Source: Impatiens glandulifera (Eukaryota > Streptophyta > Magnoliopsida > Ericales > Balsaminaceae). From it: 64,000 bases of DNA. The notes beneath the pieces were generated by a model that saw only the letters and a program-made list of their open reading frames with translations, ran no database searches and was not told the origin of the DNA. Below are positions 16,271 to 64,000 of the stretch, piece by piece (the first letter of the stretch is position 1; the number at the start of each line of letters is the position of its first letter). The position numbers and the translations under genes are program-made. Where the stretch lies: NCBI RefSeq assembly GCF_907164915.1, contig NC_061867.1, positions 46,658,242 to 46,722,241 on the forward strand, written 5' to 3'.

Positions 16271-17994
16271 GATTGATTAAAGAATAAGTAGGGTATTGTA
16301 ATATCTCTTTCTTTAAAAAAAAAAAAAAAACTTTTCTAATTGCTGAAATATTTTTTCTTTTATGATCCCTCCTAGAGTTTAGTTGTTTTTTTCACCTTAA
16401 GATTTGAATTAGTTTTATTATTTATGGTATGCAGTGACTTGTTTAGTCGGATCAGATATATCGTCATTAATTTTTAAAATTTGAATAACATTCCAAATAT
16501 TTAGTGAGTTGTTTTCTATTCGATTGAATTGATAATTATTTTTTTTTTTGTTGAATATGTGTTTATCCTACTTTAATAGTAAATAGGATAAAGTGACAAA
16601 TTTAGTGAATTATATTAGGTTGTCACCATTTTAATTATATATACATAAATTTTACTAACATTGGTTACAAACACTCCATTAAAGACAATTTGGAGAGATT
16701 CTTCTATTTTGTTTTATTGGTTCATTTGAGTTTTTTTAGTTCATCACTTATTTTTATAATATTTATATAGGCACCTCTATAAAATTAACTTTAAAATATT
16801 AACTGATAATTGTATCTTAAATTTGTACATTATTAAACATATAAATTATATAAATTCTAGTTTAGTTGTTTAAATTTTGTAAATATTATTTTATATTATT
16901 TGTAAAGACAATTAATAATATCTATCAAATTATTTGATAGTTTTTTTTGTGTGATTGTTTAATTGATTCATTTCACTTTATTTAGAAAGTTATGAAACAC
17001 AATATATATATATTATTGAAATCAACTTAAAGAAATTTAATGTAAATTGTTGAATATCTTTATTGTCGATTTTTTTTAATTGGCCATACTAGTTAATATC
17101 TTGTGTTTAGTTGTGTAAATTTGGGTAGATATTGATTGTAATTAATTTTAAGAATAAATATTCTTTATACAGTTCATTTAAACATATAAGCTATTAAAAT
17201 TTATTTAGACACATTTATTTTTCAAAATTGACTCATTAAACTTCTGGTTAAAAATATTAGCTGTGTTATTTTATTTTATTTAGTTTCTAACCTCTCTCTA
17301 CCTCCATTAATTATTTAAATTTAATTTATTATTTATTAAAATTTATTTATTTATATATTTATATCTTTTATTTATAAATAATCAAAATTTTATTATACAT
17401 AATTATTTTTTAATTATTGAGTTAATAGTCCATTAAGAAAATTAAGAAAATTAATATATTAATTATTAAATCAAAATTTATTTATTAGTTAATGTTTCAG
17501 TTATATAAATCATTTAAAATTATAATTATATATATAAATTATAGATATTAATAACTACAATATATATATAAATTTAAATTTAAATGATTTATATAATTGA
17601 AAAATAAATAAATTAAAAGTTGATTATTAAAAAATAATAAAATAAATTTAATAATTAATATGTCAATTTTAATATTTTTTTGAGTGACTTATAATGAGTT
17701 ATTAATTTACTTTTTAAATATGTTTTTATAGATAATAAAATTTTGAGTATTTTATAAATTAATAAAAAAATAAAAATATTATAAATAAATGATAAAATTG
17801 AATTTAAATAATTAACAGAGAAAGAGTGAAAAATATAGATATATAATATTTATTTAAGATGAAATAGAAAAAATAACATCATTAATAATTTAATAGGTTA
17901 AATGTACTAATTTTAAATATTATAGATGTCTATATAAAATATTAAAAGTTAATAAGTTGAAATGAACTAGTTAAATACTTACACACATCTGAGT
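16271..17994. other. AT-rich upstream region of neprosin
   Basis: No gene recognised. Very AT-rich sequence. The part from about 16980 rightward is homologous to 27010-27270, part of a decayed duplicate of this locus. Confidence 0.45.
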
Positions 17995-48791: not shown

Positions 48792-50073
48792 GATCTTTGT
48801 CGACCTGGTGTTAGAGAAGCTGTTCGGCTATGTACAAATGCTGGATTTAAGGTACGACAGTATTTAGTTTGGTTAAGATAGTGACAAGGGTCATTGTATG
48901 TGAAGTTCATATTTGTGCGCACCACTGTTATATATGGCTAAATTGGTTGAGATTTGTGTTTAAACAGGTGTGCATGGTCACTGGGGATAATATCCAAACA
49001 ACTAGAGCTATAGCCCTAGAATGTGGGATACTAGAATCAGATGCAGACACCACTGCACCAAATGTCATTGAAGGGAAAGATTTTCGGGCATTATCCGATG
49101 AGGAGAAGCTAGAAGTTCCTGAGAAGATATCAGTATGTCATGAGCTGACCAACTCAACTTGGAATTAGTTTGATGTTACTCTTATTATTTAATTAGTTTA
49201 AGTAAGGAAAGAAGTGATTCTAATTCCATGCGTAGGTAATGGGAATGTCGTCTCCCAATGATAAGTTGCTCCTTGTGCGAGCTTTGCGAAAGACAGGACA
49301 TGTTGTTGGTGTAACAGGAGAAGGAACTAATGATGCCCCCACACTGAATGAGGTATGTGTGTCAAACCATTATATTTTCTTTAGGCGGCGTGCTCTTTAA
49401 ATTCTTATCTTTTATTGCTTATTTTTTCTTCATATTATTATGCACGCACCTGACATGAGAAAAAAGATAAAGAAACAAATAGTAGGTAATTAATGGGTTC
49501 TTTTTATTTTGTTTTGTTTGGAAAAAAATTACGGTTGAATTAATTCAGTTTCTTTGGGTTAATCTCATAATGGATACACTTGGAGCTTTGGCATTGACCA
49601 CTGGACCACATACTGATCACCTAATGCATCGACCTCCGGTTGGTCAGAGGTGAGTTTGAAAATTTAATTGATTCAACCATTTTTGTTCATATTAATAGTG
49701 CGATTGCATGAGTATTGTTGTTGTTTTTGTATCTTGATTAGGGAACCGTTGATAAGAAATATAACGTGGAGGAACTTGCTAATTCAGGTATATATTATTA
49801 TTATTGGGAAGTAGGTATAAGTTGTTGTTTGATAACTTACAATTTCTAGTTAGCTATCTTAAACAAGAAATGAATAAAAATATTTTGGTTGGGTAATTTT
49901 GTTGAAACATACATACAACTGCAGACAGCTTATCAAGTGAGCGTCCTGCTCGTTCTGAACTTTCAAATAGAAAATATCTTAACTTGAAGCATGATAATCC
50001 CGACCATGCCAAAAAATTGAAGAACACGCTCATATTGAATGCTTTTGTTATTTTGCAGATATTCAATGAGGTG
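48792..50073 (+). pseudogene. autoinhibited plasma-membrane-type Ca2+-ATPase (ACA) fragment, interrupted by a retrotransposon
   Basis: Six exons with GT/AG borders: 48792-48851 (DLCRPGVREAVRLCTNAGFK), 48968-49132 (MVTGDNIQTTRAIALECGIL), 49236-49352 (VMGMSSPNDKLLLVRALRK), 49549-49649 (LWVNLIMDTLGALALTTG), 49742-49787 (REPLIRNITWRNLLIQ) and 49925-50073 (YQVSVLLVLNF, LNAFVILQIFNE). They cover the end of the P domain through part of the C-terminal membrane region of ACA8/ACA10-type P2B pumps. The actuator, nucleotide-binding and phosphorylation (DKTGT) parts are absent, as are the exons for M5. The hinge motif reads TGEGTND instead of TGDGTND, a change at an invariant Asp. The last exon has a one-base deletion and is cut by the LTR at 50074. 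It cannot encode a pump. Confidence 0.85.
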
Positions 50074-50790
50074 TGTTAGGATCGGGGACGCCCTTGGAGG
50101 ACCGGGGTGTTTTCCGGTTTCGGTAAGGGTGGCCGCTTACGCAACACACAACTCTTTTGGTGATAGTCCGGTTAAAGACTAAAACCTTTCTCAGCACTGC
50201 ACAACCTGTCACAGACTCTTGAACCGGGTTCAAGGGCGGAAATGTCTGTTTCAGGTTGAAGCAACGAATGCGACTTTTAGATGATGTTTTAGGAAGGAGT
50301 CGGTTTAATGGAGGTGAGTGACCGTTTTTGGAAGTATGATTAGTTTGCGGTTTACGTTAAGAAAGCAAAAAATGAAAGCGAAGGAAAGAACACGAGACAG
50401 GAAATTTGTTTATGGATGTTCGGAGCAAACTCTCCTACGTCACCCCTTCTTCTCAGGTTATGAGAAGGATCTCCACTAACTCTTTAGAGTTACAATTACA
50501 CTTCCGGTCGAGCCCAACTTCGCTACTCGCCGGTTACACCAAACTCACACTTTGATGTAATACAACAACTCAACAAAACAACACACACAAAGCTTCCGGT
50601 TTTAAGCACACCGGTTTTTGAATACAGGACTTTATCTCTCTAGAATTTAATGCTTTATGACTTTCAGAATTTATGATGCTCACAACTACAACTGCCGAAC
50701 TGTGTTGAATGAAGATTGCTTCTGGATTTGGACAAGCATGCCTGACAGCTACCTGCTGCCTGAAGATTGCTTCTGGATTTGGATTACTCA

Positions 50791-50901
50791 GTTAATCAAC
50801 CGGAACATTCATGACTGAGCGGCTGCAGTTAATCAACCGGAACATTTATGACTGAGCGGCTGCAGTTAATCAACCGGAACATTCATGACTGAGCGGCTGC
50901 A
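50791..50901. repeat. 37-bp tandem repeat, three copies, in the left LTR
   Basis: GTTAATCAACCGGAACATTC with ATGACTGAGCGGCTGCA starts at 50791, 50828 and 50865. It is not present in the middle LTR. Confidence 0.9.
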
Positions 50902-51118
50902 TTAAGTGTCGGTTGACCGGAGCCTTCTTTCATTAAATGTCTGTTGACCGATCTCCTAACTTAACTCCAGTTGACCAACCGGTTGACTGAACTTCTTGGA
51001 CGAACCGGTTGCTTTTACTTCAAACCGAAGTCAAACAACCGAACGGTATATATATATATTTCCAACTGAATGGATTTTGCTCAATTACCCTGAAATAACA
51101 AAACTTTAAATATTATTT

Positions 51119-51189
51119 GCAGCCAGTGGGATTTGATCCCTGGTCACCTGTGTGACAGACAGAGGCGTTTACCACTACGCTACAACAGG
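51119..51189 (-). pseudogene. tRNA-Asp-like sequence in the left LTR
   Basis: On the minus strand CCTGTTGTAGCGTAGTGGTA and the anticodon region CTGTCTGTCACACAGGTGACC closely follow plant tRNA-Asp (GUC). The anticodon loop CTGTCAC is preserved, with a pairing stem. The T-loop (ATCAAAT) and 3' acceptor strand have decayed. A tRNA pseudogene or SINE head inserted into U3 is likely. Confidence 0.6.
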
Positions 51190-51313
51190 TTCTTGTTATA
51201 TTTAAACCAATTAATATACTTGATATAACTTAGCGGTTTAACATATATTTTTCATAAGTTATAACAATTATTTTCTAACCGGTTTAAAATTAATCTACTT
51301 AATTTTTCTATCA

Positions 51314-51440
51314 ATTTCTCCCCTTTTGATTATTTAGAATAAATATTCAAAACTTGTAATGTGTGTCCGGTTTGAAAATTAACTTACTTAATTTTTCTAT
51401 CAATTTCTCCCTTTTTGATTATTTAGAATAAATATTCAAA
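51314..51440 (-). other. repeated polypurine tracts next to the left LTR
   Basis: On the minus strand AATCAAAAGGGGAGAAAT followed by TGATAGAAAAATTAAG (PPT plus LTR start) occurs at the LTR border and again about 83 bp away (51395-51415). Multiple polypurine tracts are a reported trait of Sireviruses. Confidence 0.6.
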
Positions 51441-51456
51441 ACTTGTAATGTGTGGC

Positions 51457-51880
51457 CGGTTTTTAAAAATCTTATATTTGTTTGGCCGTTTTTTAAAGAG
51501 CTTACACTTGTTTGGCCGGTTTTTGGAAAACTTATATTTGTTTGGCCGGTTTTAAAGAGATTACACTTGTTTGGCCGGTTTTAAAGAGCTTACATTTGTT
51601 TGGCCGGTTTTAAAGAGATTACACTTGTTTGGCCGGTTTTAAAGAGATTACACTTGTTTGGCCGGTTTTAAAGAGATTACACTTGTTTGGCCGGTTTTTA
51701 AAGAGATTACACTTGTTTGGCCGGTTTTAAAGAGATTACACTTGTTTGGCCGGTTTTAAAGAGATTACACTTGTTTGGCCGGTTTTAAAGAGATTACACT
51801 TGTTTGGCCGGTTTTAAAGAGATTACACTTGTTTGGCCGGTTTTAAAGAGATTACACTTGTTTGGCCGGTTTTTGGAAAA
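51457..51880. repeat. 29-30-bp minisatellite, about 14 copies
   Basis: TTTGGCCGGTTTTAAAGAG with ATTACACTTG repeats head to tail without spacers. Early units are variant (CTTATATTTG) and later ones nearly identical. A T-run of about 25 follows (51898-51923). It lies in the non-coding interior of the deleted retrotransposon copy. Confidence 0.95.
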
Positions 51881-51892
51881 ACGGTTTCATTT

Positions 51893-51923
<31 letters not shown>

Positions 51924-52073
51924 GTAAAAACGGTTTGGGTTAAGGAAAACTTCATTTTAACAAATTTTCTTCAAGTTTTGTAATTTAACAATCCTAAAAT
52001 ATTTCTAAGGGAAGAAAACTTAGACTCGAGAAGTGGCTTTGTGAGGATGTTAGCCACTTCATTCTTGTTTCCT

Positions 52074-53117
52074 TCATGTGATGTGTTCGTCAACAGCCGG
52101 CCCGGATGCAATGTTGTCTCTTCCAAGCTTTTGTCTTGATTTACCTACATTCATAGACAATAGAAAATCTGGTCCCCATTTTTCTTTGGGTCCGTGGCTT
52201 ATTAATCCTTTGGGAATCCATACTTTGATTATTTTGATGGATTTTCCGTTGTGTGTATGTATAGTATATCTACCTACTGATGATTTAACTTTAAAGGATG
52301 ATTTTCGGTAAACATCTCTAAACTTTCGGTCAAGTTTTTCTTTTCCATACAAACTGGCTGCCCTTCTCTCAGGTTTCAGCCAGCTTGAAGTTGGTTTTAC
52401 ATAAATTATCGCATCCTTTGAAGTTAAAACATTACAGCTTATAATTTCTTCCTTGAGCTTCTCATTCACAGATGAGATCTCATTTATTGAAACATCAACC
52501 TCTTTAATTTGAGATGAACATTTTGAACTATCAGATTTAATTTTTGAAATAGTTTGATTAAGGGATTTTGACAGTTTTCTATACTTAATGACCATGTCAT
52601 TTAGTGCAGCAATTAGATCATCTCGTGTAAAATCATCAAAAGAGAGATCAAATACCTCAGATTCTTTCTTAGCCGTGAAGTAGGTTTCAACTTTATCATC
52701 ATTGTCGTTGCATGATGAGTCGTCCGAATCGCTATCGGCCCATTTTCCCTTGCTTTCAGCAACCATTAGAACCTTCTGCTCTTTCTGGTTCTCCTTTGTT
52801 TGATCACTACCTTCAAACAGTTGGATCAACTTTTCCCACACTTCTTTTCCCGTTTCGCATTCCATGACTTTCTCGAAAGTGTTGTTATCCAAAGATTTGA
52901 AAATATGTCTCATGCAATGGTTGTCTAGGTTACTTCTTCTCCTATCTTCAGCCGTCCATTCTTCCGTCTCCTTGTTAATCTTTATCGGACCATCCTTTAG
53001 GATGGTGCTCATTTCATCATCCAACGTGATCAGATGTAAATACATCTGAACCTTCCAACTACTAAACGCTTCGCTGTTTAGCATTGGCGGCTTGTCACTG
53101 TGGGTCATGCTTCCCAT
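52074..53117 (-). CDS. internally deleted copia gag (UBN2-type) with pol tail scar
   Basis: The 347-codon frame starts 32 nt after the primer-binding site. Residues 1-110 are a UBN2/DUF4219-type gag (SEAFSSWKVQMYLHLITLDD, GKEVWEKLIQLFEGSDQTKE). The frame then jumps to the downstream acidic region (KGKWADSDSDDS) without the CCHC zinc knuckle. A coiled segment (VIKYRKLSKSLNQTISKIKS) and VWIPKGLISHGPKEKWGP, the gag/protease boundary region, follow. After the stop, another frame reads EVANILTKPLLESKFSSLRN (about 52075-51990), the last residues of copia pol. Nearly all of protease, integrase, RT and RNase H has therefore been deleted. This is a non-autonomous derivative; the frame itself is open and could still be translated. 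Confidence 0.75.
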   Translation of the reverse strand: MGSMTHSDKPPMLNSEAFSSWKVQMYLHLITLDDEMSTILKDGPIKINKETEEWTAEDRRRSNLDNHCMRHIFKSLDNNTFEKVMECETGKEVWEKLIQLFEGSDQTKENQKEQKVLMVAESKGKWADSDSDDSSCNDNDDKVETYFTAKKESEVFDLSFDDFTRDDLIAALNDMVIKYRKLSKSLNQTISKIKSDSSKCSSQIKEVDVSINEISSVNEKLKEEIISCNVLTSKDAIIYVKPTSSWLKPERRAASLYGKEKLDRKFRDVYRKSSFKVKSSVGRYTIHTHNGKSIKIIKVWIPKGLISHGPKEKWGPDFLLSMNVGKSRQKLGRDNIASGPAVDEHIT

Positions 53118-53148
53118 CTTCTTAGGTTGCTTGAGTGCTAAGAACCTC

Positions 53149-53160
53149 GCTCTGATACCA
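53149..53160 (-). other. primer-binding site (initiator tRNA-Met)
   Basis: On the minus strand TGGTATCAGAGC, complementary to the 3' end of plant initiator tRNA-Met, lies two bases after the LTR end (...CCTAACA). It fixes minus-strand orientation and the LTR boundary at 53163. Confidence 0.9.
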
Positions 53161-53162
53161 CT

Positions 53163-54416
53163 TGTTAGGATCGGGGACGCCCTTGGAGGACCGGGGTGTT
53201 TTCCGGTTTCGGTAAAGGTGGCCGCTTACAACACACACACTTTGGTGATAGTCCGGTTAGAGACTATAACCGTTCTCAGCACTGCACAAACTGTCACAGA
53301 CTCTTGAACCGGGTTCAAGGGAGGAAATGTCTGTTTCAGGTTGAAGCAACGTTTGCGACTTTAGATGATGTTTTAGAAGGAGTGGGTTTTATGGATATGA
53401 GTAACCGGTTTTAGGAGTATGATTGGTTTTGAGGTTAAGGTTAAATAAGCAAGAAATGAAAGCAAAGAAAGAACACGAGACACGAAATTTGTTTATGGAT
53501 GTTCGGAGCAAACCCTCCTACGTCACCCCTTCTTCTCAGGTTATGAGAAGGATCTCCACTAACTCTTTAGAGTTACAATTACACTTCCGGTCGAGCCCAA
53601 CTTCGCTACTCGCCGGTTACACCAAACTCACACTTTGATGTAATACAACAACTCAACAAAACAACACACACAAAGCTTCCGGTTTTAAGCACACCGGTTT
53701 TTGAATACAGGACTTTATCTCTCTAGAATTTAATGCTTTATGACTTTCAGAATTTATGATGCTCACAACTACAACTGCCGAACTGCCTTGAATGAAGACG
53801 ATCCGTCTTCCTTTTATAGCTGAAAGTAGCTAACGGCTACTTTCTTCTCTCTCTTGCGGATTGGTCGATCATTATCACGCCTGTTTGCAGAGAGGTTGCT
53901 TGCACGCTTCAACTTCCTCAACACCTGGCATTCATGCAGGTGACTCTGAGCATGTGATGACATACCCGGTTTTCAGATTGAGACACGTGTTGAACATCCG
54001 CTTCCGGTTGTCAGCATCGGATCAACAAAGCATCATTGCTTTCCTCGCATGCTTCTGATCGGATCCGATCTTCTTTTATTCTTTCGAGACACGTTTCTTC
54101 CGTCATGGTACGTCACTCTTGAAATTTGAATCTTCTGACTTTTGATCTGTACTATCCGGTTTCTGTGTCTTGTGCATTATGATCCGGTTGGAGTGTAATC
54201 TTTTGTTCTTCGTTAACCGGTTGCTTTGAAAAGGTAGAACCGGTTCCTCTGATCTTTGACTTGATCACTCGAGGCTGGTTTCTTTGAGGTAGTAACAACC
54301 GGTTTTTGATGCCCAAACCGGTTCATACGGTTTTAGAAGTACCTTCACATGAAGATTAACCTCTGTTTAGTTCGTCTGGCCGGTTCCAAAAATTAATCTA
54401 CTTAATTTTTCTATCA
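53163..54416 (-). mobile_element. middle LTR, shared by two tandem element copies
   Basis: TGTTAGGATC...TTTTTCTATCA, 1254 bp. On its left are a primer-binding site and gag start; on its right are polypurine tracts. It therefore serves as 5' LTR of the deleted copy and 3' LTR of the larger copy. On the minus strand GCTATAAAAGG (53820-53810) is a good TATA box placed for U3/R transcription. Confidence 0.85.
53810..53820 (-). promoter_or_regulatory. LTR TATA box
   Basis: GCTATAAAAGG on the minus strand of the middle LTR; absent from the left LTR, where this segment is deleted. Confidence 0.6.
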
Positions 54417-54720
54417 ATTTCTCCCTTTTTGATTATTTAGAATAAATATTCAAAAATTGTACTGTATGGCCGGTTCCAAAATTAATCTTCTTAATTTTTC
54501 TATCAATTTCTCCCTTTTTGATTATTTAGAATAAATATTCAAAAATTGTACTGTATGGCCGGTTTTAAAGGAATTTGCTTAGTAGCCAGTTTAGAAAAAT
54601 TAATCTACTTAATTTTTCTATCAATTTCTCCCTTTTTGATTATTTAGAATAAATATTCAAAAATTGTACTGTATGGCCGGTTTAAAAACATGAGTTTGAT
54701 TGTTTTTGAAAGAAAAATGT
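54417..54720 (-). other. three repeated polypurine tracts next to the middle LTR
   Basis: The minus-strand words AATCAAAAAGGGAGAAAT plus TGATAGAAAAATTAAG recur at about 54417, 54507 and 54625, each followed by a GGCCATACAGTACAATTTTT-type segment. The unit carries a PPT and a copy of the first bases of the LTR. Confidence 0.7.
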
Positions 54721-54915
54721 TTCAAAAACATGAGTATGATTTTTGAGAGAGATATGTTTCAAAAACATGAGTATGATTTTTGAGAGAGATATGTTTCAAA
54801 AACATGAGTATGATTTTTTGAGAGAGATATGTTAGAACATATTAGAAAGAGCAGAGTAACCAAGTTTCTGAAACAGAATAAAGCATAATTGTTCAAAGTA
54901 AAGAAATAAAGAGGT
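54721..54915. repeat. short tandem repeat and 3' flank of the accessory ORFs
   Basis: TTTCAAAAACATGAGTATGATTTTTGAGAGAGATATG recurs three times in about 110 bp (54719-54830); otherwise AT-rich. Confidence 0.6.
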
Positions 54916-56235
54916 TTAGGGCTTGGATGATCCCCCCTTGTGTTGATCTTTTTCTTGCTCCTTCTCCAACCGTCTTCTTTCTTCTTCTTGCCTTGCTCTG
55001 TGTTCTTTAGCACGTCTTTCGGCATCGATCAGCACACCGGCCCATACACTTGAATGACCGGTGCCCTTATTCTTGAGATCAAAGTTGGCACAAACTGGCT
55101 TTGGTGGTGGAGGCGGTGGAATATTTGGAGGTCTGAAGCTTGGAGTTGCTGTGGATTCTCCGGTTGTCCTTTTCTTCCGTTGATGGAGTTCCTCCGGATC
55201 TTCTTCTTCTTCCTCATCAAGCGGTTGTGCATTTATCACAACTGGTAAGGCTGTTTTCTGTTCTGCCCTCTTCATCACATTCTTAACTGCACTTCGCTTT
55301 TTCTTGTTCCTTGTACTCATGGAGTGGGACGGTTGAACCAGTGAGAGATCCTGGGCGTTGGCCTGCTCTTCCTCGTTGCATTGTTGGGCAAGCGCATAGT
55401 CTTTATCTTCAGTCTCCTTCTGTAACCGTTCCCTTTCGATCTCTTCCTCTTGCAGTTTCTTTGCGGTTTCAGCATCCTTTTCGATTTGCGTCAGAGTTGT
55501 GGTGTCTTGAACCTTGGACATTTCCCCGATTTGAATTGCCATTGCTTGCAGCATGTCAACTAATGGAGCGATTGCGGCTTTGACGGACTCGGCAATCATG
55601 GCTTTTACTGTTGTCTGCATGGTCGTGTCCATCATGGTTTGTAAAGAACTTGACAATTTATCTTCAGCCACTGCAATTCTTTCATCGGTTACGGCTTTGA
55701 ACTTTCCAATGCAAGAGTCAACCGTTTCAGCCATCGCTTGCTTGATTTGATCTATTTCCAGAGCTTTGACCGGTTGAGAGGCTTCTTGTTCCAGGTTTTC
55801 AGAGGTTCCGGATGTCTCACTGCTCATAAAAAATGGCTTACTTTGATATAACTCAGCATTGTTGAATTGACGTTGGCAACTTTTCCACCACTGCATGTCA
55901 AGACGATCAAGATTTCGCACAAGCTGTTCTCGTACCCCAAGGAATCGTTCGGCCATCCTCATTTCGATCGGGTTTAGCGTCTTTCCTTGGGTTCCTTGAA
56001 ACGCATTCTCAACTGCCTGTAACCGAGCATTTTCAAGGATTACCGGAGCTTTGTTAAACGCCGGTTGAATTAGGTTGGTGTTAGCCAAAGTAAGTGCCCT
56101 TTCTTCCAGCTGGATGAGCTTTTCCCATTGTTTGTTTCCACTAAAACCTGGAAGCATGTCGGATAACTTGGTTTCGCATCGGAGCTTCACCCACAAGATG
56201 TATGGCGCTAGCGCATCACTTGCCCCTTTGTTCAT
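54916..56235 (-). CDS. retrotransposon accessory ORF D (coiled-coil, low complexity)
   Basis: 439 codons, in the same frame as ORF C and separated from it only by TAG and four codons (56250-56236). It may be the C-terminal half of one larger product. The N-terminal part (MNKGASDALAPYILWVKLRC, PIEMRMAERFLGVREQLVRN) matches nothing I can name. A helical middle follows (KAMAE/SVKAAIAPLVDMLQ), then a strong charged coiled coil (AETAKKLQEEEIERERLQKE). Next are a basic NLS-like stretch (RNKKKRSAVKNVMKRAEQK), an acidic run, PPNIPPPPPPKP and a Lys/Glu/Arg-rich end. No membrane segment is seen, so it does not look like an envelope protein. It lies between pol and the 3' LTR on the same strand, the place of the extra ORF in Sireviruses. 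Confidence 0.65.
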   Translation of the reverse strand: MNKGASDALAPYILWVKLRCETKLSDMLPGFSGNKQWEKLIQLEERALTLANTNLIQPAFNKAPVILENARLQAVENAFQGTQGKTLNPIEMRMAERFLGVREQLVRNLDRLDMQWWKSCQRQFNNAELYQSKPFFMSSETSGTSENLEQEASQPVKALEIDQIKQAMAETVDSCIGKFKAVTDERIAVAEDKLSSSLQTMMDTTMQTTVKAMIAESVKAAIAPLVDMLQAMAIQIGEMSKVQDTTTLTQIEKDAETAKKLQEEEIERERLQKETEDKDYALAQQCNEEEQANAQDLSLVQPSHSMSTRNKKKRSAVKNVMKRAEQKTALPVVINAQPLDEEEEEDPEELHQRKKRTTGESTATPSFRPPNIPPPPPPKPVCANFDLKNKGTGHSSVWAGVLIDAERRAKEHRARQEEERRRLEKEQEKDQHKGGSSKP

Positions 56236-56247
56236 ATCTTGAATACA

Positions 56248-57777
56248 CTACTCGAAAATCTCATTTTCTTGTTCTATGGTGTAAGGAATATCGTCCCCGT
56301 TTATGGCTTCATGTTGAGGATTGGTTTGCAGCGTGCCTGTTCCGGTTTCCGTTGTTTCTTCAATGAGAATTCCTTTGCCTTTATCTACCTGAGTGGAACC
56401 TTCAGGTGTTGGTGCTGGTTGATTTTCTGTGATCATCTTCCCTCCTGCGGAACCGGGAGGTTCCTGTTCTTCAATATTTCCCTCCTGAGCCGGAGGTGCA
56501 ATTTCTGTTGTGTTGGCCGTCTCATCGACCGGTTGTGCTTCGTTTTGATCAGGTACTTCAACCTGATCATCTGGCTTTCGACGACTTGAAACATCGTCCT
56601 CTTCGGTTTCTCTTGTGATCTCCTGGACCACATTCTGAATTGCTTCTGAGGTATTCAAGCCCACATCGGCCAATACCTCTTCAACTTGCTTACTGGGTGA
56701 CTTGGAGGTTGCAGAGTGAACATTTGCCTCTGCCTCCTCCTTTGAGTTTGACTTGTTCTCCTTGCTCCCCGAAGATTCGGTTTGCCTTGGAGAATTGGAT
56801 GGGATGGGAACTGGAATAACGGTGTTGATTGGGATGGGCTGAAATACATCTGCGGTTCTTTCCGGTGGATTGTCCGAGGAAAGCGTTTTCTCGGAGTCCG
56901 CCGGTTTCTTTGAACTCTTCTTCGCAGCTACCTTCTTCCTCCTCTTCGGTTCTGGTGGTACTTCTGCTTCAACCGCTTTTCTTGACGGTTTCTTCTGTCT
57001 TGTTTCTTCTTCAACTGGAACCGATGAACTGCCTCCCTTAGATGATTTAGTCTTTGAGGATTTTGGTTTGATCGTCTTCTCCGGTTTTTCTATCATTGAC
57101 TCAGAGTCAAGAATGTTGGAGATCGGAAGCGGTATGCCTTCACCTAGTTCCACATTGAGGAACTCAAGAATTTTGACGATTTGCATAGCATAGGCCTGCA
57201 CCCGACCATCTTTCTTTATCACCATTTGACAAAACTCTTCGTATATAACGTATCCCCAGTCCACCTTGTCTCCGCGGACAATGGCCAACAACATTCTGAG
57301 CTTAAATTTTGTGAGGTTATCGAAGTTACCTCCCCTTCCTTGGAGTGATTTGGCGATGACGGTCACTAACCATCTGTATTCCGGTTTTAGCTTGATCTTC
57401 CGGCTGGTGTGAATCACCAGATCCTGACCTGAGAAAGATACAACCAACCGGGCAGCATTTGATTCTGCTTCGGTTAAGTCAATCTTTAGGTCCGAACCTG
57501 TGTTGGGCAGACCAAGGGCTTCCGCAAAGATTTCTTCAGTGATGAGGACGGCCTTCCCGTTGACAGTAGCCGAGATCTTCCTCTTCGACAGCGTCGCCGT
57601 CGCTAAGAACTCCGTCACCGCCGCCGGATGAATGATGAACGGACCAGAAAGGAACTTCTCCAACCCAGATTCTCGTAGAAGTTGAAGAACAGCCTTGTTC
57701 TTGTCGTCAGCGTGCTCTTCAATATCTGCGAAATCTACCTGCAACATCCATTGAAATGGAGCTTTGCCTAGATCCAT
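56248..57777 (-). CDS. retrotransposon accessory ORF C (plant transposon-protein-like domain)
   Basis: 509 codons. Residues 1-230 form a folded-looking domain: VDFADIEEHADDKNKAVLQL, then LLRESGLEKFLSGPFIIHP, GKAVLITEEIFAEALGLPNT, EYRWLVTVIAKSLQGRGGNF, KFKLRMLLAIVRGDKVDWGY. ORFs A and B carry diverged copies of the same domain. I recall such proteins annotated as putative plant transposon proteins in asterid gene sets. The rest is low complexity: Lys/Ser-rich with basic clusters (EPKRRKKVAAKKSSKKP), then acidic and Pro/Glu-rich. A TATA box (57899-57890) and a GGCGCC palindrome lie upstream. The frame is intact; function is unknown. Confidence 0.7.
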   Translation of the reverse strand: MDLGKAPFQWMLQVDFADIEEHADDKNKAVLQLLRESGLEKFLSGPFIIHPAAVTEFLATATLSKRKISATVNGKAVLITEEIFAEALGLPNTGSDLKIDLTEAESNAARLVVSFSGQDLVIHTSRKIKLKPEYRWLVTVIAKSLQGRGGNFDNLTKFKLRMLLAIVRGDKVDWGYVIYEEFCQMVIKKDGRVQAYAMQIVKILEFLNVELGEGIPLPISNILDSESMIEKPEKTIKPKSSKTKSSKGGSSSVPVEEETRQKKPSRKAVEAEVPPEPKRRKKVAAKKSSKKPADSEKTLSSDNPPERTADVFQPIPINTVIPVPIPSNSPRQTESSGSKENKSNSKEEAEANVHSATSKSPSKQVEEVLADVGLNTSEAIQNVVQEITRETEEDDVSSRRKPDDQVEVPDQNEAQPVDETANTTEIAPPAQEGNIEEQEPPGSAGGKMITENQPAPTPEGSTQVDKGKGILIEETTETGTGTLQTNPQHEAINGDDIPYTIEQENEIFE

Positions 57778-57889
57778 GATAGTATTTGAGAGAGGAAAAT
57801 GAAGAGTGATGATGATCGGAGAGAGGAAAGCTTTGAAGTTCTGGAAATTTTAGAGAGAGAAAGCACATGTGTTGAATGGGCTGATTTGA

Positions 57890-57955
57890 GTTTATATAGA
57901 TAGCGGTTCCAAGCGGTTTTGAAGATGAACCGTCAATTTGATGTTTTGGCGCCAA
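57890..57955 (-). promoter_or_regulatory. promoter-like region of ORF C: TATA box and E2F-like palindrome
   Basis: The minus strand has CTATATAAAC at 57899-57890, about 115 nt before the ATG, and the palindrome TTGGCGCCAAAA (57955-57944) about 50 bp further upstream. Beyond it three GGCGGTAAA-type words occur on the plus strand (57988, 58012, 58041). Confidence 0.55.
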
Positions 57956-58292
57956 CTTCCCTCCAAAAAGTTACTGCCGTAACTTTCGGCGGTAAAAGCG
58001 GAAATTCGATGGGCGGTAAATTTTGAGAGGTAAAACTATGGGCGGTTAAGATTTTTCAAATTTTCATCTTTGCTCGAAGTTCCGGTTTCTCTTGAAGTCT
58101 TGTTAACTGGAGATTATTAAGTTAACTTTAAGTTTTTGTATAAGTTTGAAAAACTGGAAAGGGATAATGTGAATGAAAAACCGGAGACTTTTTAAGAGTT
58201 GAAATATTTCATTAATACGGGAAAAGAAATGATTAACATAGGAGCGGTTCTGGTCGTACAACAAAATGACCAGAAACCGGAAAGAAAGAGAA

Positions 58293-59051
58293 TTATTCAG
58301 TAAACCATCCTCCTTCCAACCTCCTTTCATACCACTTCTCCATGGTGTTTTGAGGAGACCGTTCCTGAATTCTTAACACACATTTATAGATCATATCTAT
58401 AGTGATGGTGTTGAAGGATCCAACCGGAACACCTTTTCCAAGGTTGCGACGCTTGGACATGAGAAACCGGGTGATCTGAGGAGCGTAGCTGATCCTTCCT
58501 CTTTTACCGGTCATAAGCTGCTTCAGCTTATTGAAAAGATAGGACGCCCAGTTGATGGCGGTTTCGCGGATGATGGATATCATAATATCGAATGCCTCCC
58601 GGCTGTAGTTCTGATTGGGCATTCAGCCTATGATAGACCTTTGGACCAAATCGTGAAAGACTTGGTAGTGAGGAGCGAGATCTTCTTTCTTCCCAAAGTC
58701 CTTAACAGGAGTGTGTGAAGAAGAGAAGATCTTGAAAAAGGTTTCCTTAGCCGGTAAATACGGCGTCGGAAAATCAGAGAAACCTTCCGTTGGAAGGTGA
58801 AAGAAGGTGGCAAATTCCTCCTCAGAAAACTGGAGGAACTGACCGTCGATGATGGTGCGAATGCTGCCATCATCCAAAACATGACCGTTGTTGTAGAATT
58901 CGCACACCTCCTCCACGAGGATGAGGTCCGAACCCTTGAGAAAGCCTTTCAGGCCAGACTCTATGACATGCTGATAAATGCATTCATAGTCGTCGCTGTG
59001 CTTGATGTCTTCAAAATCAATGATCAGGGTGTTTCTTATCCCGGCAGACAT
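58293..59051 (-). CDS. retrotransposon accessory ORF B, interrupted by one in-frame TGA
   Basis: 142 codons (59051-58623), then TGA, then ATG and 108 more codons in the same frame (58622-58293). The first part shows the ORF C domain pattern: LIIDFEDIKHSDDYECIYQH, VIESGLKGFLKG, FSEEEFATFFHLPTEGFSDF, HYQVFHDLVQRSIIG. The second part continues it (FDIMISIIRETAINWASYLF, NKLKQLMTGKRG, SYAPQITRFLM). The stop falls in the linker between the two halves and is followed directly by ATG. It is either a degraded reading frame, two proteins, or a recoded stop. It lacks the long tail of ORF C. A TATA box lies at 59162-59153. Confidence 0.65.
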
Positions 59052-59152
59052 GATGATGAAGAGAAGAAGATCTTTAAGAGAGTTCTTGAGCTTTCGAGTT
59101 TTTAGAGAGAAGAATGCTTGAAGGCGTGTTTTGAAAAGTGGAAGTTGAGCCC

Positions 59153-59162
59153 CTTTTTATAG
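59153..59162 (-). promoter_or_regulatory. TATA box of ORF B
   Basis: CTATAAAAAG on the minus strand, about 105 nt before the ATG at 59051, preceded by GG as in the ORF A box. Confidence 0.55.
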
Positions 59163-59473
59163 CCTGGAATGAATGAGAGCATTTAATGAGAGGATTTGAA
59201 AATCTAGCCGTTTATGCTTAGTCATTAATGATTTTGTGATTTTCCAAGAGAATAAAGGCAAGTCTTGTCAAATCAAGTCAGGCATGCTTTTTGATAATGA
59301 GAATTTATGTTTCCAAGAGTGATACGATTTATTTTGATACGACGCATTGAATATTTTAGATTTTGACTTGGAAAGGAAAGAAATCTGATTCATTGATTGG
59401 AGTACGAAACCGGTAGTACAGCAAAAGTACCGGTTTTGTAAAGAAAAGATAAAAGAAAAGACGAAAGACAGGT
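59163..59473. other. spacer between accessory units A and B
   Basis: No ORF; AT-rich spacer holding the upstream flank of unit B and the 3' flank of unit A. Confidence 0.45.
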
Positions 59474-60235
59474 TTAGACATTTGATGACTCAGCCGCTTG
59501 AGCATTTGAAGCCTCAGCCGCTTGAATTCTTCTGGCTTTAACCGCTTCCCACCGGTCGATCATCTCTTGTACTCGTTCTTTGGTGAGCACGTGCCTTGGG
59601 TGAAGAGTGACGAAGGCTCCGGAGTGGATGTCCAGACTTGCACAGAAACCGCTCAGCTGAGGGGCGTAGCCGGTTTTGTTGGAGAGAAGCATCTTCTTCA
59701 GGTTACTGAAGATGATCCAGGACCAGTTAACCGGTGTCCCAACCGTTACGGCGATCATCATCTCGAAGACCCTTTGAGTTTAATAGTAACTTTTCTCTCT
59801 GCACAAGACAGATTTTCCCAGAATCTCGCAGAGAATCTGGTACTTGTGAGAAAGTTGACTCTTAGCACCCCAGGGTTTAACCGGGATGTCAGATCCAGAG
59901 AACCGGCGACACATTTCTTCCATTGTCACCGGGGAATAGGTTAGGTCGGTTACCCCTTCATTGGGTAAACCGCAGTATACAACGAAATCCATCTCGCTGA
60001 ATAGGAATTTTTGACCGTAAACCTGTGCAACGAGTATATCTCGATGCACCTCTTTCGCGGTTTCAAACAGTTCTTCGACTACAAGGTAGTCGATGATGAA
60101 CCTGTTTTCAAGAAAACTTCTTAGCCCACTCCTTTCTATGGCTAAGAACATTTCCTTTACTTCATGATCCTCATATTGGTAGATTGATTCAAAATCTGCC
60201 AATAGGATCTTCTTGGATAGGGAGTTGGTATTCAT
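59474..60235 (-). CDS. retrotransposon accessory ORF A, interrupted by one in-frame TAA
   Basis: 151 codons from 60235, TAA at 59782-59780, then the same frame continues for about 101 codons to 59474. The domain pattern matches ORFs B and C: LLADFESIYQYEDHEVKEMF, AIERSGLRSFLENRFIID, FSEMDFVVYCGLPNEGVTDL, KYQILCEILGKSV, then after the stop FEMMIAVTVGTPVNWSWIIF, SNLKKMLLSNKTGYAPQLSG. The C-terminal tail is Ala/Glu/Gln-rich. The stop sits within a few residues of the place of the ORF B stop. A TATA box lies at 60330-60318. Confidence 0.65.
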
Positions 60236-60317
60236 GTTTTTGAGAGAGAGGGGATTTTATCTCAAGAATGATACTTGTGAATAGTGAACTTGTGATGTTT
60301 TGAAAAGGATTAAGGAT

Positions 60318-60330
60318 GGTTTATATAGCC
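60318..60330 (-). promoter_or_regulatory. TATA box of ORF A
   Basis: GGCTATATAAACC on the minus strand, about 90 nt before the ATG at 60235. Confidence 0.55.
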
Positions 60331-60944
60331 CGGGGATTCGGCTTGGTCTTTAATGAGGTTAAGCATGCCTGATGATGTCATCAGCTATTTAATAGACTTA
60401 ACTTGTTGAAGTAACTAATGGTTATTTCCAAGGTAAATCTAATAATTACTAAGATAGCAATGATGAAAAATATCTATTGACAAGATGTAAGTCTTCCTCT
60501 CTTGATGATGGACACATGTCGTCATCTTGATTGTGGTAGACTTGTTTTTAATTAATCACAGGCTTCATTTTTCAAAACATGCACGAAAACTCGGTCAGTC
60601 ATCTCAGGTTAACCGGAAAAGTTCATTTCATCAGACCAGAGTGCATATGTACTAAGCGGTTTTCCATGACCGGTTTTAGTAGGATATTTCCGTTTATGAA
60701 GAACAGTTGATTGATATCAACAATTGTTCAACTTTGGACTTGTTTCATCCACTTCAACCTGGTTATTTCAACCGTATTAGTAAACATACATTTGATTTGA
60801 ATTTTTGAAATAGTCGGGCATAACCGGAGACTTCCTCCCGGTTAGCATATTTGATTTATTGATGGCCTATTTGAATATGGTTTGAGAGGCTTTAGCTTCT
60901 CCCTAAACACATATCCCGGTTTTATATACACGCATGCATTATGA
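60331..60944. other. spacer between pol and the accessory units
   Basis: About 610 bp without an ORF between the pol stop and the ORF A TATA box. It is long enough to hold an independent promoter for unit A. Confidence 0.5.
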
Positions 60945-63900
60945 TTATATCAATTGATTAAGATTAGTGAGACCCAAGATATTTCGAAAATGTGAAAACT
61001 TAGCTTCCTGTAGCGGTTTCGTGAAGATGTCCGCTACTTGTTGCTCGGTCGACACATATTCCAGCCGGATGTGTTTCTCCTGAACATGCTCCCGGATGAA
61101 ATGGTGTCGGATGTCGATATGCTTTGTTCTCGAGTGCAACACCGGATTGTATGTGATCGCTATGGCGCTGGTGTTGTCACAAAATATTGGAGACTCATTT
61201 GCGTTTATTCCGAAGTCCCTGAGTTGCTGTTGAATCCAGAGGAGTTGTGCACAACAGCTTCCAGCCGCTAAGTACTCCGCCTCTGCGGTTGACGTTGCAA
61301 CGGACGTTTGTTTCTTGCTGCTCCAAGTGACTAACCGGTCACCCAGAAACTGACAGGTTCCACTTGTACTCTTTCTGTCGATTTTGCACCCCGCGTAATC
61401 GGCATCTGAGTAGCTTATTAAATTGAAGCTCGAGTCTTTTGGGTACCAAAGTCCCACTTCTTGAGTTCCCTTCAAATATTTTAATATTCTTTTAGCCGCC
61501 GTATAATGAGATTGTTTTGGATTTGCTTGGAACCTTCCGCATACTCCAACCGCAAACAGAATATCAGGTCGGCTTGCCGTGAGATACAACAGCGATCCGA
61601 TCATTCCTCGATATGCTGTGATGTCAACGACTTGACCATCATCATCTTTGTCTAGCTTCACGGAAGGACTCATTGGCGTAGCCGCTTCGGCACAGGTATC
61701 CATCCCAAATCTCTTCAGCAGTTCGGCTGTATACTTTGGTTGGCTTATAAAGATTCCGGCTTCCATCTGTTTAACCTGAAGTCCTAGAAAGAAGCTCATT
61801 TCTCCCATCATACTCATTTGAAATCTATCAGTCATCATTTTCGAAAATTTGTCACATAACTTTGGATCGGTTGACCCGAATATGATATCATCAACATAAA
61901 TTTGAACAAGTAGAATTTGCTCCTTTCTTTCAAATTTAAAGAGGGTTTTGTCTACTGAACCTATTGTAAATTTGTGATCAAATAGAAATTGTGTCAAAGT
62001 ATCATACCAAGCTCTTGGAGCTTGTTTCAAACCGTAAAGGGCTTTATTCAGCCGGTAAACGTGATTTTCATGTTCTGGATTTTTAAAACCTGGAGGTTGG
62101 TTAACATACACCTCTTCATTTACTTTACCGTTTAGAAAAGCGCTTTTAACATCCATTTGATAAACTTTGAACTTTTTGAAAGCTGCGTATGCTAAAAATA
62201 TTCTAATGGCCTCAAGTCTAGCTACAGGGGCGAATGATTCTTCAAAATCAATGCCTTCTTCCTGCTTATATCCTTGAGCCACTAACCGGGCTTTGTTCCT
62301 CGTAACTAAACCGTCTTTATTGAGTTTATTTCTGAATACCCATCGTGTGCCTATAACCGGTTTGTTTTTCGGTCTAGGAACTAGGTACCAGACTTTATTT
62401 CTCTCAAACTCGTTTAATTCCTCTTGCATTGCCAAGATCCAATCTGGATCTGACAACGCTTCATCCACCTTTTTCGGCTCAATGTGTGATATGAAAGCAG
62501 AGTTTCCATAGTGATCCAAATTTTGTTGCCTAGTTCGGACGGGTGAGGATATGTTACCTATTACTAGTTCAAGAGGATGATTTTTGTTCCTTCTGAGGTT
62601 AATCCGAGACGTGTCTACCAAGCTTTCGGTTGGCTGATCAAGGTTAGACTGATCGGTAGGTTGAACAGAGTCAGACCGACCGATTTCTTCAGTAGAAACT
62701 GAAGCGTCAACTTTCTGCGGTAAGGCAGCTTGATCAGGCTGAATTTCAACATCAACCGCTTGGTCCTTGACAAAGCGTCTAAAAACCGGAACCTCGTCTT
62801 CATCATCAGAATAGATATTGAAATTTTCCATTCTGTTGTGAAGGTCGAAGGGTAATGCAGTGTTTCGCTCAACCGATTCATCGAAAATAACGTGTGCGGT
62901 TTCTTCAACTGTTAAAGTCCTAGTATTGTATACTCTGTAGGCTTTACTCACAGCTGAATATCCCAACATTATTCCCTCATCGGATTTAGCATCAAAAGCG
63001 GTCAAGTACTTCTTGCCGTTATTGTGAACAAAGCATTTACTACCAAAAATTCGAAAATACCGTACACTTGGAATTTGATCAAAATAAATTTCAAAAGGAG
63101 TTTTCGAAAACCGTTTAGTTACTAAAGATCGATTTTGTGTATAGCAAGCAGTGTTGATAGCTTCAGCCCAAAACTTTTGAGCGACACCCGAATCGGCTAT
63201 CATTGACCTTGCGGCTTCCTTGAGAGTTCGGTTTCTTCTCTCAGCCAGGCCATTTTGTTGAGGAGTTCTGGCACTAGACAACTCGTGCCTAATACCGGAA
63301 TCATCAAGAAAAGTAGTTAAATTACTATTTATAAACTCAGTTCCTCTATCACTTCTCATTTTGTTTACTTTAATAGATTTTTCATTTTGTATTCTCAAAA
63401 TCAGTTTAATCAAGTTTGGAGTTGCTTGATTCTTAGAAGCTAGAAAAGTAACCCAAGTAAATTTAGAGTAATCATCAACAACCACCATAGTATAATGCAT
63501 TCCTCCTAAACTAGTTACTTTAACCGGACCAAACAGATCCATATGCAACAGTTCTAAACATCTTTCAGATTGATAATTTCCTTTACTTTTAAAAGATGAT
63601 TTCACTTGTTTTCCCATTTGACATGCAGCACATACTTTATCTTTTGAGAATTTAACGTTTGGAAAACCGTGAACTAGTTCCTTGGAACAAATAAAGTTAA
63701 TCGTTTTGAAGTTCAAGTGATTTAGCCGTTTATGCCAAAGCCAGTTTGGATCATTTCCGGCTATCATACACACAGGTTTTTCGAAATCAGTTTTCCAGTT
63801 CACTTTGTAAATGTTTCCTATCCGGTTACCGGTTAACAAAGTGTCATTATTTTGATTTTTGACCAAGCATGAGTTTTTATGAAATTCAACTTTGTAGCCC

Positions 63901-64000
63901 ACGTCACACATTTGGCTTATGCTTAGTAAATTAAAGCTTAATTTTTCTACTAATAGCACATTATTTATGGATAGTTCACCATGGACAATCTTACCCTTGC
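60945..64000 (-). CDS. Ty1/copia (Sirevirus-like) pol polyprotein, 5' part outside the window
   Basis: Over 1000 codons without a stop, running off the right edge. In order are: the end of the protease/linker ([15 protein letters not shown]); the integrase HHCC zinc finger ([19 protein letters not shown]); the DDE integrase core ([39 protein letters not shown]); RT ([52 protein letters not shown]); and RNase H ([69 protein letters not shown]). All catalytic residues I can check are present, so the copy is young. [17 protein letters not shown] is the Sirevirus-type wording. Gag, the start of pol and the 5' LTR lie beyond 64000. Downstream follow the accessory units and the shared LTR. Confidence 0.93.

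What the first reader, a model, noticed from the sequence alone, without database searches (positions are those of the whole stretch)
54916..60330. A Sirevirus-like retrotransposon carrying three paralogous accessory genes, each with its own promoter
Between pol and the 3' LTR lie three ORF units (A 60235, B 59051, C/D 57777) on one strand. All share one domain pattern: F-x2-I, then acidic residues, ESGL-x2-FL, a later FxE-x2-F, LP-x2-G-x2-D, then a second helical half. Identity is low, so the triplication is old, yet the frames are mostly open. Each unit has a TATA box 85-120 nt upstream of its ATG (GGCTATATAAACC, GGCTATAAAAAG, CTATATAAAC) and non-coding spacers of several hundred bases. That looks like separate transcription units rather than one env-like ORF read from the LTR. 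A retroelement with a promoter-equipped, duplicated gene set of unknown function is unusual.
Basis: partly seen in the sequence, partly recalled or inferred. Interest (0 to 1): 0.9.

Follow-up and report, generated by a model that had tools for sequence, protein, structure and literature searches.

The report
Retrotransposon with three conserved accessory genes
A plant jumping gene (retrotransposon) carries a row of three related extra genes, each behind a conserved promoter-like sequence, and comparison of its copies shows that natural selection has preserved all three, although what the proteins do is unknown.

Summary
On the minus strand after pol lie three genes: A (60235-59474), B (59051-58293) and C/D (57777-54916; C and D are one gene). 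They share a ~230-aa domain (E 1e-14 to 2e-8 between units; shuffles 0.12 or worse) distantly related to Pfam PF20167. In this copy each has one in-frame stop. In the host genome (Impatiens glandulifera) 23 of 24 other copies read carry A-B-C-D in the same order. dN/dS is 0.116 (A), 0.155 (B), 0.101 (C domain), 0.269 (C tail) and 0.214 (D); shifted frames exceed 1. The three TATA boxes are kept in all 19 aligned close rows and in 4/4, 3/4 and 3/4 diverged copies; conserved islands lie upstream. So this is a selected accessory gene set with probable internal promoters; transcription is not shown. No transmembrane stretch was found, and C and D carry basic clusters, so nuclear proteins look likelier than an envelope. 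Precedents: SIRE extra ORFs, Grande gene23 (own promoter), an Athila ORF with PF20167. A tandem set of three paralogs was not found in the papers searched. Copies were chosen by similarity, not at random.

The parts
60945..63999 (-). 3' part of pol (integrase, reverse transcriptase), open to the window edge
   Evidence: Pfam RVT_2 E 1e-77, rve, gag_pre-integrs; no stop up to the window end
60855..60860 (-). AATAAA (polyadenylation-like signal) after pol
   Evidence: same hexamer in 19 of 19 rows and 3 of 4 diverged copies
60321..60327 (-). TATA box of unit A (TATATAA), 92 nt before the ATG
   Evidence: 19 of 19 rows, window included; 4 of 4 diverged copies
59474..60235 (-). gene A, about 253 codons, one in-frame stop in this copy
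   Evidence: dN/dS 0.116; intact in 13 of 19 rows
59328..59333 (-). AATAAA between A and the TATA box of B
   Evidence: 19 of 19 rows; 1 of 4 diverged copies
59202..59261 (-). conserved island upstream of B's TATA box, with AAACGGCTAGA near its end
59155..59161 (-). TATA box of unit B (TATAAAA), 110 nt before the ATG
   Evidence: 19 of 19 rows; 3 of 4 diverged copies
58293..59051 (-). gene B, about 252 codons, one in-frame stop in this copy
   Evidence: dN/dS 0.155; intact in 13 of 19 rows
57928..57987 (-). conserved island upstream of C's TATA box with palindrome TTGGCGCCAA (57946-57955)
   Evidence: TTGGCGCCAA in 23 of 23 rows
57892..57898 (-). TATA box of unit C (TATATAA), 121 nt before the ATG
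   Evidence: 19 of 19 rows; 3 of 4 diverged copies
54916..57777 (-). gene C/D, one frame of about 953 codons, one in-frame stop in this copy
   Evidence: dN/dS C domain 0.101, C tail 0.269, D 0.214
57232..57669 (-). PF20167 (Transposase_32)-like part of C, residues 37-182
   Evidence: E 1.4e-7, 32 bits, below the Pfam cut-off of 45
53163..54505 (-). internal LTR (LTR_M), unlike the outer LTR pair
   Evidence: 71-79% to the outer LTRs, which are 99.3% to each other
53149..53162 (-). LTR/PBS junction AGTGG-TATCAGAGC of the Sirevirus type, at the internal LTR
   Evidence: pattern described in PMC2829016
52074..53117 (-). gag fragment behind the internal LTR
   Evidence: Pfam Retrotran_gag_2 E 1e-8
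50074..51402 (-). outer 3' LTR of the composite insertion (LTR_L)
   Evidence: target duplication AGGTG at 50069-50073 and beyond the right LTR

Best explanation
This is a Ty1/copia retrotransposon family of Impatiens glandulifera, probably of the SIRE lineage. Beyond gag-pol it has a module of three tandem, anciently duplicated accessory genes, all read in the sense direction. Most likely each is a separate RNA polymerase II unit: a proximal element, a TATA box, a leader of roughly 60-90 nt and the gene, with A ending at its own AATAAA before B starts. A and B are small single-domain proteins. C/D is the same domain fused to a basic, probably disordered tail and a long predicted helix. I think they act together in the nucleus as accessory factors of the element, either protecting it from silencing or helping its RNA or cDNA, rather than as an envelope. 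Shown: paralogy, conserved order, purifying selection on all three genes, conserved TATA boxes. Inferred: transcription from those boxes, nuclear location, joint action, function.
For: A, B, C homology. 23 of 24 other copies read carry A-B-C-D in order. dN/dS with bootstrap: A 0.116 (0.072-0.177), B 0.155 (0.109-0.215), C domain 0.101 (0.067-0.145), C tail 0.269 (0.193-0.371), D 0.214 (0.165-0.280), pol end 0.047 (0.020-0.089); frame-shifted controls 1.10-1.96. Four diverged copies against one close copy, L009 (dS 0.19-0.58 for A, B and the C domain): A 0.05-0.10, B 0.14-0.21, C domain 0.06-0.07. Shared changes are more constrained than private ones in all five stretches. TATA kept. Between diverged and close copies the 30-nt blocks 150-210 nt before the ATG differ by 3.3% and 2.3% at C (neighbours 10.7% and 13.9%) and by 3.9% and 7.8% at B (neighbours 11.4% and 6.4%); A has low blocks at 210-300 nt (2.8-3.3%). 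TTCAA lies about 23-28 nt after the TATA in 16 of 19 (A), 16 of 19 (B) and 18 of 19 (C) rows; 44 of 5000 shuffles matched the window's pattern. AATAAA after pol and after A in 19 of 19 rows. No upstream ATG in A's leader in 19 of 19 and in B's in 17 of 19 rows. No 19-residue window above a Kyte-Doolittle mean of 1.4, and basic clusters in C and D.
Against: No expression data. The TATA box is changed in 1 of 4 diverged copies at B and in 1 of 4 at C. AATAAA after A is present in only 1 of 4 diverged copies, and none was found in the B-C spacer. C's leader has one upstream ATG in 18 of 19 rows. The 24 bases around the TATA boxes of A and B vary more than the 100 nt upstream of them. The three upstream regions are not clearly homologous: only B-C clearly exceeds shuffles (3 of 500 as good), A-B (68) and A-C (244) do not. 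The nuclear role rests on sequence character alone; B also has one weak basic match. The 20 close copies were the top hits to C on large contigs and the four others came from the B list, so they are not a random sample.
Confidence: 0.62

Rival explanations
1. The three genes are read from subgenomic RNAs that start in the 5' LTR and are spliced, as in retroviral env; the TATA-like boxes are incidental.
For: Splicing of env-like ORFs is reported for barley Bagy2 (review PMC7264820). Leaders are pyrimidine-rich, and an AG lies within 40 nt of the ATG of A and B in 19 of 19 rows.
Against: No AG in the last 40 nt before C's ATG in 19 of 19 rows. TATA boxes at near-fixed distance in 19 of 19 rows at all three genes. 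AATAAA after pol and after A in 19 of 19 rows.
Confidence: 0.18
2. The module is an envelope-like or movement gene set that helps particles pass between cells.
For: Position between pol and the 3' LTR in sense orientation is that of env-like ORFs of Sireviruses (PMC2829016, PMC6317226 passages). D has a long predicted helix, at low confidence. A relation to the SIRE1 or ToRTL1 env-like proteins was not tested.
Against: No transmembrane-like stretch in A, B, C or D; basic clusters in C and D; three genes, two of them small, rather than one large one.
Confidence: 0.08
3. Sequence-specific anti-silencing: one or more of the proteins bind the AACCGG boxes that crowd the LTRs, spacers and even the coding regions of the element, and remove silencing marks, as VANC proteins do for VANDAL transposons.
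For: AACCGG/CCGGTT counts: 21 (0.44 expected) in LTR_M, 15 (0.39) in LTR_L, 13 (0.38) in the linker spacers, 16 (1.84) in the accessory coding parts, 8 (0.85) in pol, 6 (4.4) in window 1-46000. It ranks first of 2080 hexamers in the coding parts taken together under synonymous-codon shuffling (24 against 6.9; z 6.8; shuffled sets reach at most 6.0). A 29-bp array of 14.5 units repeats the box. VANC motifs also spread by tandem repeats (PMC5735166 passages).
Against: Boxes in spacers are not better kept than other CpG hexamers (0.872 against 0.871, P 0.51); in coding parts they are (0.928 against 0.864, P 0.012). Taken singly, neither the accessory set (z 5.5) nor pol (z 4.1) exceeds the best chance hexamer of the shuffled sets. 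The gag fragment has none. CGG-CCG boxes are reported in Sireviruses with and without env, so a host factor may be the binder. No DNA-binding fold could be shown.
Confidence: 0.15
4. Captured or passenger sequence that is simply decaying.
For: Each gene has one stop in this copy, and 5-7 of 19 rows are broken in each part.
Against: dN/dS far below 1 with shifted-frame controls. Stops in the rows lie at scattered codons. By my count 141 of 150 A places, 139 of 150 B places and 50 of 84 C places scored have no stop in the query stretch, though these are top-scoring lists.
Confidence: 0.02

Closest known systems
SIRE/Sirevirus extra ORF (eORF-3'F, 'env-like') of Ty1/copia elements
   Same: Ty1/copia element, sense ORFs between pol and the 3' LTR, Sirevirus-type LTR/PBS junction at the internal LTR, CGG-CCG boxes in the LTR and linker.
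   Different: Three paralogous genes with TATA boxes instead of one ORF; no transmembrane stretch; PPT octamer AGGGGGAG absent. Sequence relation to known SIRE eORFs not tested.
Grande gene23 (maize Ty3/gypsy), nuclear protein from its own promoter
   Same: Accessory gene in a long pol-3'LTR region with its own promoter (review passages and reference titles; the paper itself is not held).
   Different: Gene23 is antisense to gag-pol and in a gypsy element; here sense, copia, three genes.
PF20167 Transposase_32 / Athila ORF1-type 3' aORF proteins
   Same: C's domain matches PF20167 at E 1.4e-7. A sunflower Athila 3' aORF is partly similar to PF20167 and has a predicted nuclear localization signal (PMC11728184 passages).
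   Different: Host element is copia; C is below the Pfam cut-off; the A and B pieces do not hit the Pfam model.
VANC anti-silencing proteins of VANDAL transposons
   Same: Accessory gene plus a short DNA motif multiplied in the same element, partly as tandem repeats (PMC5735166 passages; PMC10398659 abstract).
   Different: VANDALs are not LTR elements; sequence relation not tested; motif here also enriched in coding sequence; activity unknown.

Membership tests
Sirevirus (SIRE lineage of Ty1/copia) | LTR/PBS junction CA-A(T/G)TGG-TATCAGAGC | tested here: inconclusive
   present at the internal LTR_M (CA-AGTGG-TATCAGAGC; pattern); this element's own 5' junction is missing, gag sequence lying next to a truncated LTR
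Sirevirus (SIRE lineage of Ty1/copia) | PPT octamer AGGGGGAG, several copies near the 3' LTR | tested here: not met
   no AGGGGGAG in window 49900-64000; instead AAGGGAGA at 51406, 54420, 54509 and 54627, by the LTRs. PMC2829016 reports only two of its elements with a variant octamer
Sirevirus (SIRE lineage of Ty1/copia) | CGG-CCG palindromic boxes in LTR and linker | tested here: met
   AACCGG / ACCGGT strongly over-represented in LTRs and spacers (description)
Sirevirus (SIRE lineage of Ty1/copia) | inverted repeat around the PPT, polyC integrase signal | not tested
   features named
Sirevirus (SIRE lineage of Ty1/copia) | RT/INT domains group with SIRE elements | not testable with these tools
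   Pfam says Ty1/copia (RVT_2 etc.); no reference set at hand for a lineage tree
PF20167 Transposase_32 | score above the curated cut-off (45 bits) | tested here: not met
   C 32 bits, E 1.4e-7; A and B pieces no hit. Distant relative rather than a member
env-like ORF | transmembrane segment(s) | tested here: not met
   highest 19-residue Kyte-Doolittle mean 1.38; no dedicated predictor was run
Accessory gene with own promoter (Grande gene23 type) | transcription from an internal promoter | not testable with these tools
   only conserved TATA boxes and upstream islands
Accessory gene with own promoter (Grande gene23 type) | maintained in most copies of the family with coding constraint | tested here: met
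   in the 24 copies read and the 19 rows aligned; copies chosen by similarity
VANC-like anti-silencing factor | protein binds the element's repeated motif and removes methylation | not testable with these tools
   motif enrichment only; site conservation mixed

The most novel reading that the evidence does not exclude
An LTR retrotransposon with a self-directed anti-silencing module: three internally promoted paralogous proteins recognise the AACCGG boxes that the element has multiplied through its LTRs, spacers and even coding frames, and so keep the family active. Conserved E2F-like and MSA-like sites (names recalled, from no call) upstream of C and B would tie their expression to dividing cells.
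Probability: 0.12. Interest if true: 0.88.

Novelty: new variant of a known kind. Interest (0 to 1): 0.62.

Why it matters
Extra ORFs of plant retrotransposons are common but mostly of unknown function; [quoted passage not shown] Here three paralogs in one many-copy family show codon-level constraint, A and the C domain within about a factor of two and a half of the pol end, with conserved promoter-like sites. This is a clear case that such ORFs matter to the element, and a tractable one: many open copies, three related genes to compare, and a repeated DNA motif as a candidate target.

Tried and rejected
Readthrough or recoding at the in-frame stops: rejected, because the rows' stops sit at scattered codons and 22 of 23 rows have none at the C/D junction; the window's stop in A is its own, that in B (codon 143) is shared with one row, L023. 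Passenger or captured fragment: rejected on dN/dS. LTR_M as pair of an outer LTR: rejected. An early guess of the LTR ends (51311, 54415), used, was later corrected to 51402 and 54505. Structure prediction: C 1-230 pLDDT 41, D pLDDT 53, too poor for a fold search, so none was run. Protein search with A1+B1: no hits; domain-only search of C: 4 hits, all I. glandulifera. Viral contigs and genome-contig scans: no relatives. PDB: none for C. NCBIfam: nothing credible. Shared ancestry of the three upstream regions: only B-C clearly beats shuffles. AACCGG site conservation: not above control in spacers. Diverged subfamilies (P0007) were asked for in the genome 13 times and never answered. The element's own PBS was sought and found deleted.


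Full report
What is there. The window is from Impatiens glandulifera: the 8 protein relatives found for C are all from that species, and the window maps to contig 6 of a 654-Mb genome; four of the five distinct contig lengths listed for these proteins recur among its contigs. On the minus strand, pol of a Ty1/copia element runs open to the window edge. A and B are each split by one stop in the same way. The half-pieces were searched apart.

Homology. In a set with 140 shuffles of each of seven pieces, A1-B1 scores E 1e-14, A1-C 2e-12, B1-C 2e-8, A2-B2 4e-7, B2-C 2e-7 and A2-C 4e-4; the best shuffle is 0.12. A profile of C is weak against A2 (0.11). tblastn of C on the window aligns A and B over about 230 residues (E 6e-16 and 5e-15). 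C residues 37-182 match PF20167 (E 1.4e-7, below cut-off); the pieces of A, B and D match nothing in Pfam.

Other copies. The genome search scored 84 places for C, 150 for A and 150 for B. The tool says such counts are lower bounds, and the first-look candidates (about 16,500-16,800) are not copy numbers. By my count 50 of 84 C places, 141 of 150 A places and 139 of 150 B places have no stop within the query stretch; these are the best-scoring places and so favour intact ones. I read 20 close copies, the top hits to C on large contigs, and four diverged ones from the low end of the B list. Of the 20, 19 have A, B, C and D in order; in L022 only 16% of A remains. L027 has all four genes but a second B piece where the pol end should be. 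The four diverged copies have all parts. L022 and L027 were left out of the alignments.

Selection. With the window and 18 copies (19 rows), dN/dS is 0.116 for A, 0.155 for B, 0.101 for C residues 1-232, 0.269 for the rest of C, 0.214 for D and 0.047 for the pol end (bootstrap over codons). Reading the same alignment in the two other frames gives 1.10-1.96. Rows intact: A 13, B 13, C 12, D 14 of 19. Changes shared by rows are more constrained than changes private to one row in all five stretches, as expected if selection acts in lineages that transpose. Between the close copy L009 and the four diverged copies A keeps 0.05-0.10 at dS 0.19-0.32, and the C domain 0.06-0.07 at dS 0.31-0.58. Stops lie at scattered codons; two codons of B are hit in two rows each, one of them the window's. 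The values are averages over non-independent pairs and the copies are not a random sample.

Promoters. TATA boxes stand 92, 110 and 121 nt before the ATGs; all 19 rows keep a TATA core at each, at 90-106, 108-113 and 116-122 nt. In the diverged copies A's is kept in 4 of 4, B's and C's in 3 of 4; one of these copies also lacks C's ATG at the aligned place. The bases right before the ATGs of B and C are the most variable of their spacers among close rows and among the most variable against diverged copies. Islands further upstream vary little: 3.3% and 2.3% in the two blocks 150-210 nt before C's ATG, 3.9% and 7.8% in those before B's, 2.8-3.3% at 210-300 nt before A's, against 6-29% in most other blocks of the B and C spacers. 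The 24 bases around the TATA boxes of A and B are not themselves the least variable. C's island holds TTGGCGCCAA in 23 of 23 rows, its only occurrence in the window; B's holds AAACGGCTAGA in 22 of 23. I recall these as E2F-like and MSA-like sites; no call names them. TTCAA lies about 23-28 nt after the TATA in 16, 16 and 18 of 19 rows at A, B and C (44 of 5000 shuffles match the window's pattern; chosen after the fact). AATAAA follows pol and A in 19 of 19 rows, and in 3 of 4 and 1 of 4 diverged copies. The B-C spacer has none. The upstream regions as wholes are not clearly related. Together this favours three transcription units, but no transcript data exist here.

Proteins. No membrane-like stretch by hydropathy; basic clusters in C (near residue 278) and D (near residue 315), one weak one in B. 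The D model has a 140-residue helix at low confidence; the C domain model is unusable. An envelope is therefore unlikely, a nuclear role plausible. In sunflower an Athila 3' aORF with partial PF20167 similarity has a predicted nuclear signal (PMC11728184, passages), and Grande gene23 is described as nuclear and transcribed from its own promoter (PMC7264820, parts 1 and 2 of 3 read).

A repeated motif. AACCGG is the top hexamer in both LTRs, the spacers and pol, and second in the accessory coding parts. Under shuffling of synonymous codons it stays in excess: 16 against 4.9 in the accessory genes and 8 against 2.1 in pol (0 of 1000 each), although the 400 further shuffles did reach 8 in pol. 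Over all coding parts together it ranks first of 2080 hexamers, z 6.8, against at most 6.0 for any hexamer in 200 shuffled sets. Taken singly, the accessory set (z 5.5, rank 1), C/D (rank 2), pol (rank 3) and A+B (rank 17) do not exceed the shuffled maxima of 6.2-6.9. Sirevirus boxes are described for LTRs, the linker and in two elements the start of env; I saw none described within pol. Site conservation is mixed: 0.849 against 0.792 in spacers and 0.892 against 0.788 in coding parts, with other CCGG hexamers close behind at 0.833 and 0.873; by majority sites there is no difference in spacers (P 0.51) and some in coding parts (P 0.012).

The insertion. The outer LTRs (50074-51402 and one ending at about window position 67308, my arithmetic) are 99.3% identical over 956 aligned columns and flanked by AGGTG. 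The right one is truncated: its inner part and the PBS are gone and gag-like sequence adjoins it, so this copy is dead. Between the outer LTRs lies a second, unlike LTR (53163-54505) with a gag fragment and a pol-end fragment. An exon-like ORF 0.9 kb away (48869-49168) matches plasma-membrane calcium-transporting ATPase 8 (E 1e-16; nothing in Pfam); that the insertion point is itself in an exon I read from the flanks by eye.

Novelty. Eight of the ten paper searches bore on extra ORFs, Sireviruses, PF20167 or internal promoters. In their listings (titles, starts of abstracts) and in the passages I read, none described a plant retrotransposon with three paralogous, separately promoted sense genes. 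[quoted passage not shown] The library lacks most subscription journals, so this is weak evidence of absence. I file it as a new variant of SIRE-type accessory ORFs.

Noticed in passing
window 50069-50073 and L029 1251-1255: The composite element carries target duplication AGGTG and sits in a Ca-ATPase-like gene (nearby ORF 48869-49168 matches calcium-transporting ATPase 8, plasma membrane-type).
   Followed up: partly
window 50074-54505: Internal unlike LTR with gag and pol-end fragments inside one insertion: an LTR-int-LTR-int-LTR composite of about 17.2 kb.
   Followed up: partly
L035 1-281 with L029 1-301: The right outer LTR lacks its inner part and the PBS; gag-like sequence lies directly beside it.
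   Followed up: partly
window 50074-64000: AACCGG hexamer over-represented in LTRs, spacers and coding frames, beyond synonymous-codon shuffles.
   Followed up: yes
window 51449-51873: 29-bp tandem array, 14.5 units, consensus with GGCCGG; further 37-bp and 89-bp arrays nearby (50789-50905, 51279-51462, 54377-54564, 54680-54833).
   Followed up: no
window 51118-51189, minus strand: tRNA-like sequence (Rfam RF00005, 33.8 bits) inside the left LTR; not called by ARAGORN.
   Followed up: no
window 57946-57955: Palindrome TTGGCGCCAA upstream of C's TATA box, in 23 of 23 aligned rows.
   Followed up: partly
window 59203-59213: AAACGGCTAGA upstream of B's TATA box, in 22 of 23 aligned rows.
   Followed up: partly
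P0002, P0003, P0007, P0008: Annotated I. glandulifera proteins named DNA ligase 1-like, sesquiterpene synthase 2-like, calponin homology domain-containing-like and acetylajmalan esterase-like contain pieces of this accessory module; P0008 joins the start of B to the tail of C.
   Followed up: partly
window 10685-11269, minus strand: Second Ty1/copia pol fragment, 37% identical to this element's pol.
   Followed up: no
L022 and L027: Two copies rearranged near A: A mostly lost in L022, a second B piece in place of the pol end in L027.
   Followed up: no
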